DNA from: an uncultured Lentisphaeraceae bacterium
GTDB lineage: Bacteria > Verrucomicrobiota > Kiritimatiellia > RFP12 > DVOR01
Direction of reading: 5' to 3'
DNA length: 10,219 nt
Assembly (NCBI GenBank): GCA_946056345.1
Contig: CAMGJH010000012.1
Location: 1 to 10,219, forward strand
The notes beneath the pieces were generated by a model. It was not told where the DNA came from. It saw only the letters and a list, made by a program, of their open reading frames with translations, and searched no databases. This document shows, piece by piece, positions 5,728-8,561 of this stretch. Numbering within the stretch: position 1 is the stretch's first letter; the number at the start of each line of letters is the position of its first letter. A program made the translations under genes and the position numbers.

Positions 5728-5749
5728 CTAGGGAAAAGTCGACAGAGAG

Positions 5750-5878
5750 CAGTTGACAGTCGACAGTCGCTAACGCGACGGCCCGGCGTGGAGGGAAACC
5801 GTGACACCCCCGCCCTCAGACGCAGGCCAATCCGTCGCGGAACGCGCCCCTGCCGACTGTCGACTGGCGACTGCCGAC
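5750..5878. repeat. Intergenic inverted heptamer-array element, copy A
   Basis: The left arm is a run of 7-bp units: CAGTTGA (5750), CAGTCGA (5757), CAGTCGC (5764), then TAACGCG (5771). The right arm has units TGCCGAC (5851), TGTCGAC (5858), TGGCGAC (5865) and TGCCGAC (5872), which on the other strand read as CAGTCGN units. The arms are therefore inverted copies, pairing at about 18 of 21 positions. A second inverted pair lies inside: CGCGACGG (5774-5781) and CCGTCGCG (5832-5839). The core carries GAAACCG (5795-5801) and CTCAGACG (5815-5822), both shared with copy B. It fills the gap between the Nudix stop (5898) and the coaE promoter. It could form a long hairpin in RNA or single-stranded DNA. 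The family and function are unknown to me. Confidence 0.8.
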
Positions 5879-5897
5879 TCTGCGGCGGCAGCTGCCC

Positions 5898-6347
5898 TCA
5901 GTGCGCTTCCAAGTGCTGGCCGGGGCGCTCGAGCACGCGCGGCAGGTCGGCAATCAGGTGCGCGGGCAGGAGATTGGCCTCGCGCAGCGCCGCTTCGGTG
6001 AAGGGCACCCAGCGGAAGGTGATCCAGCCCTCCTGCGCGCTCACTTCGCCCCCCACCCCACGCAGTTCCGGCACCTCCATCGCAAAGAGGAGGTTGATCT
6101 CGCAGTGCGGTTCGCCCGCCTGCTCAAAGCGATTCTCGGCCACGGCCAGGAAGTCGCCCACGCGCGCCTCCAACCCCAGCTCCTCGCGCATCTCGCGCGC
6201 CAGCGCCACGCGGGCGGTCTCGCCGAACTCGATATGCCCGCCAGGCAGGTAGCAACGCCCGCCCGCCTTCGGCTGGCAGACCAACACCTGCCCTTCGCGC
6301 ACCAACACGCCCCGGGCAATCGTCTCGATATTCGCGTTCTCGTACAT
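5898..6347 (-). CDS. Nudix hydrolase
   Basis: A 149-residue Nudix-fold pyrophosphohydrolase that would cleave a nucleoside diphosphate linked to another group, using Mg2+ or Mn2+. The complete Nudix box runs from Gly37 to Leu59. Its ligands are Glu43, Arg51, Glu52, Glu55 and Glu56 (GHIEFGET... REMREELGL). The box is preceded by the usual CYLPGGHIE strand. Residues 110-127 (GWITFRWVPFTEAALREA) are also usual for the fold. The substrate cannot be told from sequence. The ATG at 6345-6347 puts the box at the normal depth; only a distant GGAG precedes it. The gene stands alone between repeat copies A and B: 166 bases separate it from ychJ and 276 from coaE, so it may have its own promoter or depend on read-through from asd-ychJ. 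Confidence 0.92.
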   Translation of the reverse strand: MYENANIETIARGVLVREGQVLVCQPKAGGRCYLPGGHIEFGETARVALAREMREELGLEARVGDFLAVAENRFEQAGEPHCEINLLFAMEVPELRGVGGEVSAQEGWITFRWVPFTEAALREANLLPAHLIADLPRVLERPGQHLEAH

Positions 6348-6349
6348 CG

Positions 6350-6370
6350 TTTGCTCGCTCCGCTCGCAAA
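6350..6370. repeat. Small GCTCGC repeat/dyad directly upstream of the Nudix start
   Basis: Two GCTCGC units (6353-6358 and 6362-6367) are separated by TCC. The outer pentamers TTTGC (6350-6354) and GCAAA (6366-6370) are an inverted pair. The dyad begins 3 bases from the Nudix ATG, so it lies in the leader and could affect initiation. It may equally be simple-sequence DNA. Confidence 0.35.
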
Positions 6371-6377
6371 TTGCCGT

Positions 6378-6504
6378 CAGCGGACAGCCGATAGCGGACA
6401 GCCGCTAACGCGACAGTGAAACCGCTGAGGCAACAAGAACAAGCTGTAACGGCTCAGACGGCCATTCCACCTCGAGCGCCAGCGCTGTCAGCTGTCCGCT
6501 GTCC
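6378..6504. repeat. Intergenic inverted heptamer-array element, copy B
   Basis: The left arm has units CAGCGGA (6378), CAGCCGA (6385), TAGCGGA (6392) and CAGCCGC (6399), then TAACGCG (6406), exactly the unit that closes the left arm of copy A. The right arm has units GCTGTCA (6484), GCTGTCC (6491) and GCTGTCC (6498). On the other strand these read as CAGCGGA and CAGCTGA, so the arms are inverted relatives. The core contains GAAACCG (6418-6424) and CTCAGACG (6453-6460) followed by GCCATTCC (6461-6468). Copy A has matching GAAACCG and CTCAGACG, then GGCCAATCC after a 3-base insertion. The element fills most of the gap between the Nudix start and the ychJ stop, its right arm ending 9 bases from that stop codon. 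Confidence 0.8.
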
Positions 6505-6513
6505 GCCGGGCGC

Positions 6514-7011
6514 TTACTTCCCGCAGCACTTCTTGTACTTCTTGCCCGAACCGCAAGGGCAGGGATCGTTGCGGCCGGGGCGGGGCTGCTCGTTGACGAT
6601 AGGCTTGGGCTTGACCAGCTCGCCGTCAATGAACTTCCACTGCCCGTCCACACGCTTGAAGAGCGAACGCTCGTGGTGCTCGAAGTCGGTCTTGTTCACG
6701 CGATAGCGCGCCACGAACTCGACCACGCCCTCGTCGTCGGCGGCCGTGCCGGCTTCGGTGGCGAGGACCTCCATTCCCAACCACTCGGAGCCCTCGGACC
6801 AGCGGCGGGAGGACTCGGCATCGAACTCCGCCTGCACCTGGGGGCCGGAGGAGTTGTAGAGGAAGTCGATATTATCGGTGGCGTAGGCGGCGTAGCGCGC
6901 GCGCATCAACTGCTCGGCCGTCTCGGCCTGGCGCGCACCATCCAAAATCGGTCCGCAGCAATCGGCCTTGGCCTTGCCGGACCCACAGGGGCAAAGAGAA
7001 GTATCAGACAT
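6514..7011 (-). CDS. YchJ-like SEC-C zinc-binding protein (UPF0225 type)
   Basis: A 165-residue protein with a SEC-C zinc motif at each end. The first has Cys7, Cys9, Cys18 and Cys19 ([13 protein letters not shown]). The second has Cys151, Cys153, Cys162 and Cys163 ([17 protein letters not shown]). Between them is a YchJ/NTF2-like middle domain, recognisable by the [21 protein letters not shown] segment (32-52) and the later ERSLFKR...GQWKFIDGE part. The same three-part layout and similar length are known for E. coli YchJ; the function of that family is not established. The start at 7009-7011 has an AAGGG-like site 4 bases upstream. It follows asd by 28 bases on the same strand, so cotranscription with asd is likely, but I see no functional link. 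Confidence 0.9.
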
Positions 7012-7039
7012 AACGCCCTTCTATTCTATCGCGCGGGCC

Positions 7040-8068
7040 TTAGACCAGCTCGCGCTTGATGAGTTCCTCGGCAATCTGCACGGCGTTGAGCGCGGCACCC
7101 TTGCGGATGTTGTCGCCCGAGCACCACAGCGCGATGCCATTCTCCTCGGAGGGATCGATGCGAATGCGGCCGATGCCCACGTTGTCCTTCCCGCCAAAGT
7201 CCTTCGGCATCGGGTAGACGGCGCTCGGCAGGTCGTCGACCAGCTCCACGCCCGGGGCCTTGCGGATAATCTCGCGCACCTCTTCCACGGTGAAGGGCCG
7301 CTCGAAGGTGGCGTGCACTGCGATGCTATGCGCGTAGAAGACCGGCACGCGCACGCAGGTGCAGGCAATGCGCAGGTTCGGCGCGCCGAGGATCTTGCGG
7401 CTCTCGAAGGTCAGCTTGGCCTCCTCGGTGGTGAAGCCGGGCATCTCGGGCTTGGGCCCGCCAATCTGCGGAATCACGTTGGCCACAATCTGGTGGGCAA
7501 AGGCCTTCGGCTCGGTCGCCTCGCCATTGGCCACCTGCTTCATCTGCGTGCCGAGCTCCTCGATGGCCGCACGCCCGGCACCCGAGACGCTCTGGAAGGT
7601 GACTGCGGTCATGTGGCGCAGAGGGTTGACGCGGTGCAGCGCGGCAATGCCCATCAGCGTGATAATCGTCGAGCAATTCGGGTTGGCAATGAAGCGCGAA
7701 CCCTTGCGAATCATCGCCTCCATATCGTCGGCATTAATCTCGGGGATGACCAAGGGCACATCGTCGTGCATCCGGAAGTCGTCGCCATTATCGATGACAA
7801 AGGCCCCCTTGTCGGTCGCCACCTTGCCCCACATCTTGCTGGCGCCCTTCGAGCCCTCCGTCCCGGCAAAGAGGACGATATCCAGCCCCTCGAAGCTCTC
7901 GGGCTTCGTCTCGAGCACATGGAAGGTCTCACCCGCAATCACCTCGTCGCGCTCACGCGTGGCCAACACGCGGATCTCGCTCGCGGGGAACTGCCGCTGG
8001 CGCAGCACCTTGATCATTTCCGTACCAACGGCACCAATGCCGACCAGACCGACTTTGTATTGCTTCAT
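7040..8068 (-). CDS. asd: Aspartate-semialdehyde dehydrogenase
   Basis: Reduces aspartyl-4-phosphate to aspartate semialdehyde with NADPH, the branch point to diaminopimelate/lysine, threonine and methionine. At 342 residues it is of normal length. The N-terminal Rossmann segment is KVGLVGIGAVG (5-15). The catalytic Cys132 lies in NPNCST (130-134). TFQSVSG (157-163) carries Gln159, and RVPVFYAHS (240-248) carries Arg240 and His247, the expected substrate-binding and acid/base residues. The reading frame is open for 20 more codons upstream to 8128, but the ATG at 8066-8068 is preferred. It puts the Rossmann motif at the true N-terminus, has GGGAG 9 bases upstream, and leaves the promoter outside the gene. 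It leads the asd-ychJ unit. Confidence 0.96.
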   Translation of the reverse strand: MKQYKVGLVGIGAVGTEMIKVLRQRQFPASEIRVLATRERDEVIAGETFHVLETKPESFEGLDIVLFAGTEGSKGASKMWGKVATDKGAFVIDNGDDFRMHDDVPLVIPEINADDMEAMIRKGSRFIANPNCSTIITLMGIAALHRVNPLRHMTAVTFQSVSGAGRAAIEELGTQMKQVANGEATEPKAFAHQIVANVIPQIGGPKPEMPGFTTEEAKLTFESRKILGAPNLRIACTCVRVPVFYAHSIAVHATFERPFTVEEVREIIRKAPGVELVDDLPSAVYPMPKDFGGKDNVGIGRIRIDPSEENGIALWCSGDNIRKGAALNAVQIAEELIKRELV

Positions 8069-8105
8069 CTTCTCAAACTCCCGGTTGGGTGTGAAAAACA
8101 GGTGC

Positions 8106-8128
8106 ATAATACCACAAACCCTCGTCAA
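8106..8128 (-). promoter_or_regulatory. Candidate promoter of asd
   Basis: On the minus strand TATTAT (8106-8111) is preceded by TGG, an extended -10 (TGGTATTAT). It would start transcription about 30 bases before the asd ATG, leaving room for the GGGAG ribosome site. The 11-mer GTTTGTGGTAT covering it (8109-8119) occurs again, identical, before the lipoprotein gene (9897-9907). TTGACG (8123-8128) is a good -35 hexamer but lies only 11 bases from the -10, too close for normal use. At the proper 17-base distance the sequence is TTTCCC. I therefore read it as an extended -10 promoter. Confidence 0.5.
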
Positions 8129-8166
8129 GGGAAACTAGAAAGAAACGAACCCCGCCCCCAACGCCC

Positions 8167-8196
8167 CCTTATATAAGGTATACGCGCGCACGCGCG
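8167..8196. promoter_or_regulatory. Palindrome next to an alternating purine-pyrimidine tract
   Basis: CCTTATATAAGG (8167-8178) is a perfect 12-bp palindrome, notable in DNA this GC-rich. It overlaps by one base the palindrome GTATAC (8178-8183), which runs into a CG-rich stretch. From 8178 to 8196 purines and pyrimidines alternate strictly for 19 bp, a pattern that favours Z-DNA. CGCGCG, CA, CGCGCG (8183-8196) is also an inverted pair. It lies about 100 bp upstream of the asd ATG, so an operator or easily melted site is possible. The function is inferred. Confidence 0.4.
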
Positions 8197-8215
8197 AGGC
8201 GGATGGCGCAGTGCT

Positions 8216-8334
8216 CAGCAGTTAGCAGTTAGCGGTTAGCGGTTAGCGCGCGTGCCGCGACGGAGAGGCTGGCGGTCCATTGACCGGGCTCCCCACCTCC
8301 GGCAACAGCCTTCTCGCCTAGCGCCTAGCGCCTA
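8216..8334. repeat. Intergenic inverted heptamer-array element, copy C
   Basis: The left arm has five 7-bp units: CAGCAGT (8216), TAGCAGT (8223), TAGCGGT (8230), TAGCGGT (8237) and TAGCGCG (8244). The right arm has TCGCCTA (8314), GCGCCTA (8321) and GCGCCTA (8328), which read TAGGCGN on the other strand. Unit length, orientation and overall size match copies A and B. CCGCGACGG (8255-8263) sits just inside the left arm, as CGCGACGG does in A. Unlike in A and B, the two arms are only loosely complementary (about 11 of 17 in the best register I find), and the core shows only a weak match to B near GGTCCATT (8274-8281). Confidence 0.7.
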
Positions 8335-8344
8335 TCGAAAAAGC

Positions 8345-8397
8345 AACCCGGCCCGGGTCGACCTCGAACCCGGGCCTACCTCGAGGCGAACCCGGGG
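8345..8397. repeat. AACCCGG repeat cluster
   Basis: AACCCGG occurs at 8345, 8367 and 8389, each exactly 22 bp from the next. The first two copies, with CCCGGGT (8352-8358) and ACCCGGG (8368-8374), also form an inverted pair around a 9-base loop. CCTCGAGG (8379-8386) is a further palindrome. A related ACCCGGGTT lies at 8503-8511. The units between the AACCCGG blocks are not well conserved, so this is either a decayed tandem repeat or a cluster of protein-binding sites. Confidence 0.45.
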
Positions 8398-8561
8398 CGG
8401 ACAAAAATGTAAAGCAGCCGGGGGGTGAGGGAAGAGAGCGGAGGCGGAGGACCCAGCGCCCCCTTGCAAACACCCGTCTAGCCCAAGCCCAGAGCGCCCT
8501 CGACCCGGGTTTAGAGTTCCCCTGAGGCAACTTTTCCCTATCGCCGCGCACGAAGAAAGTG

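What the first reader, a model, noticed from the sequence alone, without database searches (positions are those of the whole stretch)
5750..8334. Three intergenic elements built from inverted arrays of 7-bp repeats
Elements at 5750-5878, 6378-6504 and 8216-8334 are 119-129 bp long. Each has a left array of YAGNNGN heptamers, a 63-73 bp core, and a right array of the same heptamers in inverted orientation. All lie between genes, in the only long gaps of the window. The shared unit length, orientation and size make chance unlikely. Degenerate heptamer repeats (STRR) are known from cyanobacterial intergenic DNA, but I know of no description of paired inverted arrays around a core like this. Candidate roles, all inferred: a structured RNA, a miniature mobile element with heptamer ends, or a terminator/insulator hairpin.
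Basis: partly seen in the sequence, partly recalled or inferred. Interest (0 to 1): 0.8.

Follow-up and report, generated by a model that had tools for sequence, protein, structure and literature searches.

The report
Small mobile elements with seven-base ends
The three repeats look like copies of a small selfish DNA element that has spread through one bacterial genome, and their odd ends, inverted runs of seven-base repeats, are of the same kind as those that surround a widespread but poorly understood bacterial gene called S23.

Summary
The arrays are real. E1 and E2 are inverted heptamer arrays around a core; E3 is a hybrid whose right array is another heptamer and does not pair with the left. 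Core models for E2 and E3 find 29 and 26 copies (48 distinct places) in this Kiritimatiellota-type genome and none in 18 relatives; E1 is hit by neither. E2 is absent from 9 of 9 comparable congeners read. A sister copy sits exactly between purA and uppS; 13 of 13 congeners read lack it. So the E2 family has been mobile.

This genome's only S23 gene (PF05635, 23S rRNA intervening-sequence protein) is bounded by inverted heptamer arrays, and E2's right end matches that element's right end. S23 genes in many phyla are bounded likewise: inverted flanks in 50/80, 24/30 and 24/30 loci, against 0-3 in six control sets. Best reading: ORF-less, non-autonomous S23 elements; the mobilising enzyme is unknown. 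Paired or four-unit heptamers were already published for Xanthomonas and Geobacter, without an S23 link in what I read.

The parts
5738..5771 (+). E1 left heptamer array (AGTTGAC AGTCGAC AGTCGCT clean at 5751-5771, degraded units before)
5772..5850 (.). E1 core, with a GCGACGG-type hairpin module at both ends (by eye); not hit by model R1 or R2
   Evidence: absence from the hit lists
5851..5879 (-). E1 right array, inverted, four units (AGTCGGC AGTCGCC AGTCGAC AGTCGGC on the minus strand)
6378..6406 (+). E2 left heptamer array, four units
6402..6484 (+). E2 core (model R1 match, 59.9 bits, E 3.5e-16; one of the 11 training sequences)
6485..6508 (-). E2 right array, inverted
8216..8247 (+). E3 left heptamer array (AGCAGTT AGCAGTT AGCGGTT AGCGGTT)
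8245..8316 (+). E3 core (model R2 match, 76.7 bits, E 1.9e-21; one of the 8 training sequences)
8312..8338 (-). E3 right array, a different heptamer (GATAGGC-like type), not complementary to the left array

Best explanation
E1-E3 are ORF-less, non-autonomous members of an S23-type element family. A full element is: an array of about four heptamers, a short hairpin module, the S23 gene (a four-helix-bundle protein; a solved Xanthomonas relative is a ring of five), a second end, and the inverted array. The ORF-less copies keep the ends, have a core of roughly 60-130 bp in place of the gene, and have spread through this one genome. SHOWN by sequence: many copies of the E2 and E3 families restricted to this genome among those searched; absence from orthologous sites in congeners at two places; a precise insertion between purA and uppS, with the purA stop codon TAG now completed by the first heptamer; inverted heptamers around S23 genes in many phyla; concordant units in the two arms; E2's right inner end equal to that of this genome's S23 element. 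INFERRED: the S23 ring binds the heptamers, perhaps one subunit per unit, in the hairpin of RNA or single-stranded DNA and helps full and ORF-less copies to move; the cutting or copying enzyme comes from elsewhere and is unknown; copies survive at gene 3' ends because many arrays start at the stop codon.
For: Copies: R1 29 and R2 26 hits in own, 0 in 18 relatives; the array pattern hits 114 times in own (reversed-pattern control 21), 0 in 13 and 2-4 in 3 of 16 congeners. Empty sites: 9 of 9 and 13 of 13; 164-bp insert. S23 link: own S23 gene has arrays on both sides; R1 positions 58-83 match L031 1877-1901, 13.8 bits, E 0.0015, ending where the right array is called to begin; the exact end motif occurs in 16 of 258 loci then held, all of own. 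Generality: inverted flanks of at least 20/24 in 50/80 (controls 1/54, 3/54), 24/30 xanthomonad (0/30, 0/28) and 24/30 own order (0/30, 0/26). Arm concordance: mean unit distance 0.88 within a locus against 3.25 (sd 0.19) for shuffled partners, in the 26 of 80 loci with arrays on both sides. PDB relatives 2gsc and 2rld with five chains each.
Against: No experiment shows S23 binding or any movement. R1 hits only L031 of 8 S23 loci, with a 25-nt match. Array presence goes with S23 presence over 59 genomes (27/49 against 1/10, p 0.013) but not inside the genus (3/10 against 1/7, p 0.60), and the own genome's S23 arrays (GTGAACG) are not of the main type of the ORF-less copies. 30 of 80, 6 of 30 and 6 of 30 S23 loci did not reach the inverted-flank threshold. 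S23 carries no known catalytic domain, and no reverse transcriptase was found in own or 11 congeners. E1's own family was not modelled. The MAG is 78% complete, so an enzyme may be missing.
Confidence: 0.62

Rival explanations
1. REPIN-like elements: two inverted CGTC-tagged palindromes mobilised by a RAYT-type Y1 transposase, with the heptamer arrays as passengers.
For: The module CCGTCGCGnnnCGCG resembles a CGTC-tagged REP (Di Nocera et al. 2013, PMC3733652, abstract and passages), and E1 has it at both ends in inverted orientation (by eye). That paper says CGTC REPs lack a known transposase. Own has one Y1_Tnp match below the cut-off.
Against: 15 of 16 congeners have no Y1_Tnp match. 0 of 24 Y1_Tnp loci have a period-7 array within 900 bp on either side, against 18 of 30 S23 loci; 15 of the 24 do have inverted flanks of another kind.
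Confidence: 0.12
2. Regulatory sites: paired sites for a global regulator, or structured RNA or terminator parts at gene 3' ends, kept for their effect on expression.
For: Location between genes, often at stop codons; E1 and E2 fold; several congeners have a terminator-like hairpin, by eye, at the E2 gap. Geobacter four-unit heptamers were read as regulatory sites (PMC2700814, passages), TAACTGA repeats as translational sites (PMC4679880, abstract and passages).
Against: Copies are specific to one genome, absent from orthologous gaps, and lie beside unrelated genes in the few pairs identified. E3 does not fold. No promoter and no terminator-like site inside E1 or E2 in the scan.
Confidence: 0.13
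3. Miniature elements of an ordinary DNA transposon whose full copy is missing from this incomplete assembly; the S23 likeness of the ends is shared capture or chance.
For: MAG 78% complete; no full copy with a transposase was seen; no S23 copy with the E2 core as a whole.
Against: The E2 right end equals the S23 element's right end in own; inverted heptamers around S23 genes are widespread.
Confidence: 0.1
4. Plain tandem repeats made by polymerase slippage (STRR, G-quadruplex repeats).
For: Unit number varies and long arrays exist, such as 14 units at C163.
Against: Conserved cores with an inverted partner array; two or more units on both sides of 16 of 27 uncut R1 hits, against 3% of random sites per side (11 of the 16 are training copies); precise 164-bp insertion.
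Confidence: 0.03

Closest known systems
23S rRNA intervening sequences with an S23 ORF (Coxiella IVS; PMC4990558, passages seen)
   Same: S23 gene between terminal inverted repeats that form a stem; the paper notes tandem heptamers (GACAGAT) at the IVS 5' end and calls the IVS selfish.
   Different: The elements here are outside rRNA (no Rfam match in 20 S23 loci, nor in the window), and E1-E3 lack the ORF.
GGGAATC heptamer repeats of Xanthomonas (Rehm et al. 2015, PMC4692102, sections 10 and 16 and passages read)
   Same: Mostly four units; 70 and 75 convergent inverted pairs; intergenic, nearer the 5' neighbouring ORF. S23 loci of the xanthomonad family carry units of this kind.
   Different: Explained there through G-quadruplexes, function left open; no S23 link in the sections and passages read. 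The main units here (AGCNGAC, AGTNGAC, AGCNGTT) lack GGG runs.
Four- and five-unit heptanucleotide elements of Geobacter metallireducens (PMC2700814, passages)
   Same: 49 elements of four tandem heptanucleotides; 15 of 16 class-3 sites of five.
   Different: Read there as regulatory; no mobility or S23 link in the passages seen.
REP/REPIN with RAYT (PMC3733652, abstract, outline and passages)
   Same: Small intergenic inverted elements; CGTC-tagged palindrome at some ends.
   Different: Heptamer arrays; no RAYT association.
Diversity-generating retroelement protein Avd (PMC10053308, passages)
   Same: Homologous to PF05635 according to that paper.
   Different: Avd works with a reverse transcriptase; none found in own or 11 congeners.

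Membership tests
S23 (IVS-type) element | S23 (PF05635) ORF inside | tested here: not met
   One PF05635 match in own, on C96, none in C12; E1-E3 cores are under 100 bp. They are called ORF-less relatives, not members.
S23 (IVS-type) element | terminal inverted repeats forming a stem | tested here: inconclusive
   Met for E1 and E2, not for E3.
S23 (IVS-type) element | inverted heptamer arrays as ends (proposed here) | tested here: met
   E1, E2; S23 loci 50/80, 24/30, 24/30 with inverted flanks; E3 hybrid.
S23 (IVS-type) element | location inside 23S rRNA | tested here: not met
   No Rfam match in the window or in 20 of the S23 loci.
MITE | short, no ORF, inverted ends, many copies | tested here: met
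   E3's ends differ.
MITE | absent from orthologous sites | tested here: met
   E2 9 of 9 read; C172 copy 13 of 13 read. E1 and E3 have no comparable site.
MITE | target-site duplication | tested here: inconclusive
   None evident at the one precise site, by eye.
MITE | ends shared with a transposase-bearing element | tested here: inconclusive
   Ends shared with an S23 element, which bears no transposase; Y1_Tnp loci lack the arrays.
REP/REPIN | RAYT associated with the repeat | tested here: not met
   0 of 24 Y1_Tnp loci have period-7 arrays; 15 of 16 congeners have no match.
Rfam RNA family | match to a curated family | tested here: not met
   0 matches in the window at gathering scores.

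The most novel reading that the evidence does not exclude
S23 proteins are the dedicated factor of a widespread class of mobile elements that has no transposase of its own: a pentameric ring reads paired arrays of about four heptamers, one unit per subunit, and brings the hairpin to a host or borrowed enzyme that inserts it at gene 3' ends. The dispersed four-unit heptamers of Xanthomonas, Geobacter and others are its ORF-less offspring, and rRNA intervening sequences are one specialised landing site.
Probability: 0.35. Interest if true: 0.88.

Novelty: new variant of a known kind. Interest (0 to 1): 0.74.

Why it matters
Heptamer arrays have been reported separately in Xanthomonas, Geobacter, cyanobacteria and Beggiatoaceae with separate guesses (G-quadruplex, regulator site, translational control), and PMC4990558 says S23 proteins have no known function. 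Joining the two gives a testable partner: S23 as reader of the arrays. It also asks for a reason other than G-quadruplexes for the preference for four units, since the main units here lack GGG runs, and it shows a small element that inserted exactly between two genes that overlap in related genomes.

Tried and rejected
G-quadruplex account of the four-unit preference: not fitting here, the main units lack GGG runs. Pure base-pairing account of the arms: weakened, the fourth base of the unit is complementary in 11 of 33 pairs, expected fraction 0.371. Heptamer as a three-frame stop cassette: only thought through, many units hold no stop codon. RT-driven (DGR-like) movement: no RT in own or 11 congeners. 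RAYT: see rivals. E1 and E3 orthologous sites: in the congeners read the neighbours differ, so no test. Literature: the ten searches listed no paper that I could see linking S23 genes with heptamer arrays, apart from the heptamers inside the Coxiella IVS; two searches were swamped by unrelated hits, only 4-40 rows per search were listed, and subscription papers and bioRxiv are mostly not held.

Limits: genome searches with models score only up to 150 candidates per genome, so counts are lower bounds and absence is within that limit. The four-unit mode (48 of 73) is biased, because loci were fetched with a pattern needing nearly four units; a few of the 73 overlap on opposite strands. The core-anchored count avoids that bias, but 11 of its 29 hits are the training set: right arm exactly 4 in 15 of 27 uncut hits; left arm 4 or 5 (junction unit counted) in 18 of 27; of the 16 uncut hits outside the training set 5 have two or more units on both sides and 12 on at least one. 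Gene calls are by codon statistics; of 36 elements 16 lie between co-directional genes, 4 divergent, 3 convergent, 7 overlap a called ORF, 6 are at contig edges. The array pattern is not specific in every genome: in G048 the reversed control equals the hits. E2 empty sites: 11 congeneric loci were fetched, 2 dropped (L037, L040, no NUDIX neighbour), 4 matching congeners not fetched, 1 without a match.
Full report
1. Observation. The five period-7 arrays of the window all lie in its three long intergenic gaps; periods 5, 6, 8, 9 and 10 give 0-2 in the whole window; motif hits 10 against a shuffle mean of 0.003. Neighbouring genes by Pfam: CoaE, NUDIX, YchJ/SEC-C, semialdehyde dehydrogenase, AAA_14/DUF4143. 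E1 and E2 pair and fold, E3 does not, because its right array is another heptamer. No Rfam match.

2. Copies. The window is contig C12 of a 1.45-Mb, 78%-complete genome in 293 contigs. The four-unit pattern hits 114 times, reversed-pattern control 21. In 16 same-genus genomes it hits 0 times in 13 and 2-4 times in 3. From 50 segments (107 kb) I listed 22 motif pairs and 73 arrays of three or more units. Eleven E2-like copies align with a conserved core and eight E3-like copies with 82% mean column identity. Core-only, sequence-only models give 29 (R1) and 26 (R2) hits in own and none in 18 relatives, 11 of the genus and 7 of the order. Seven places are hit by both, so 48 distinct places; the weakest cover only part of a model. 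Neither model hits E1; copies with a GACGG-type module at both ends like E1 (C47, C80, C185) were seen by eye only.

3. Anatomy. Left array, a short hairpin followed by GCGAC(G/A)G, a variable middle, in the E2 group CGGCTCAGACGG and CTCGAGCGCCAGCG, then the inverted array. Over 321 units (the unit pattern used there fixes or limits positions 1, 2, 3, 5 and 7) position 4 is C 132, G 110, T 64, A 15. Position 4 of paired units is complementary in 11 of 33, expected 0.371, so the stem is six-pair blocks broken at every seventh base. In the RNAalifold consensus 6 of 28 pairs have changes on both sides; three of these are the C-to-T change shared by the three AGT-type copies, and the covariation term is small (-0.78). 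Unit number: 48 of 73 arrays have exactly four (biased); core-anchored right arms have four in 15 of 27.

4. Mobility. E2: 11 congeneric loci were fetched; two lack the NUDIX neighbour; in the other 9 of 9 the gap has no array, and several have a terminator-like hairpin by eye. C172 copy: between purA and uppS by Pfam. In 13 of 13 congeners read the element is absent; in 10 the purA stop and the uppS start overlap (TGATG or TAATG). In own, 164 bp lie between the last purA codon and the uppS ATG, beginning with the stop TAG, whose AG is the start of the array. No target duplication is evident by eye. The insert also holds an outer module (CCGAGCGTAGCGAGG); its CGCTNCGC form is in the outer flank of 20 and the inner flank of 4 of 73 arrays. 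Of 27 arrays with a coding frame running in, the stop lies in or overlaps the array in 13, 3-15 nt before it in 9, further off in 5.

5. The S23 link. The genome has one PF05635 gene, L031, with GTGAACG arrays on both sides; the stop of the gene before it (gatB, read by eye) lies in the first heptamer. Of 7 congeneric S23 elements printed, a left hairpin ending in GCGAC is visible in three (L048, L062, L063) and a (C)GTCGC- or ATCGC-hairpin before the right array in four (L057, L060, L062, L063), by eye. R1 hits L031 at 1877-1901 (13.8 bits, E 0.0015 over 24.9 kb) and none of the other 7 loci; the exact end motif is in 16 of 258 loci then held, all of own. Generality: of the best 80 of 589 S23 loci in public genomes, 50 have inverted flanks of at least 20/24 (controls 1/54, 3/54); 39 have a period-7 array on at least one side (controls 3/54, 2/54; other periods 0-5 of 80) and 15 on both. 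Own order: 24/30 inverted, 17 either, 11 both; xanthomonad family: 24/30, 19, 11; inverted flanks in controls 0/30, 0/26, 0/30, 0/28. In 26 of 80 loci with arrays on both sides the arms share the unit (0.88 against 3.25). In the xanthomonads 13 of 30 loci have comparable units; 10 lie before the same start motif (accB-accC, recognised by eye); arms agree at position 2 in 13/13 (expected 8.0), position 5 in 12/13 (6.7), position 7 in 10/13 (7.3); positions 1, 3, 4 and 6 are fixed by the unit pattern. Two of these proteins align over most of their length with XCC0516 (PDB 2gsc), which PMC4990558 describes as a homopentamer.

6. Mechanism. Shown: spread, precise insertion, ends of the same kind as S23 elements. 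Inferred: trans action of the S23 ring and a borrowed enzyme. Against: no RT, Y1 transposases not linked, no within-genus association of arrays with S23 presence. I put the claim 'ORF-less S23 relatives that were mobile' at about 0.75 and the S23-in-trans step at about 0.45.

7. Known or new. Paired heptamer arrays were described in Xanthomonas, four-unit heptamers in Geobacter, TAACTGA repeats in Beggiatoaceae and cyanobacteria, heptamers in the Coxiella IVS. I saw no link between S23 genes and dispersed heptamer arrays in the listings of ten searches (see tried and rejected). So: a new variant of a known kind, with a case for a new class of element.

Noticed in passing
window 8338-8424: A separate GC-rich dispersed repeat lies just right of E3; matches of up to 97% identity lie on many other contigs (C83, C72, C111, C162), often but not always near E3-like copies.
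   Followed up: partly
G000 C25:4602-4725 and C163:3694-3791: Very long arrays: a GTTCACC-type array of about 124 bp and a 14-unit AGYNGAC array, no function seen.
   Followed up: no
G000 C40:2598-2760 and C113:2470-2616: Two copies lie inside long frames that codon statistics call as genes: perhaps in-frame insertions or miscalled ends.
   Followed up: no
outer flank of copies on C4, C83, C97: GATAACGTGGCA-like sequence stands just outside one array in several copies, perhaps another element module.
   Followed up: no
L060 and L062 (G005, G006): Two congeners carry an S23 element after the same gene end, so that insertion is shared or the site is favoured.
   Followed up: no
G022: One genome of the order has 23 PF05635 matches, a possible S23-element burst.
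   Followed up: no
G000 C131:2369-2533 (L121): Weak Y1_Tnp match below the cut-off in a 405-aa frame; no heptamer array near it.
   Followed up: partly
[quoted passage not shown] whether heptamer arrays play any part is open.
   Followed up: no
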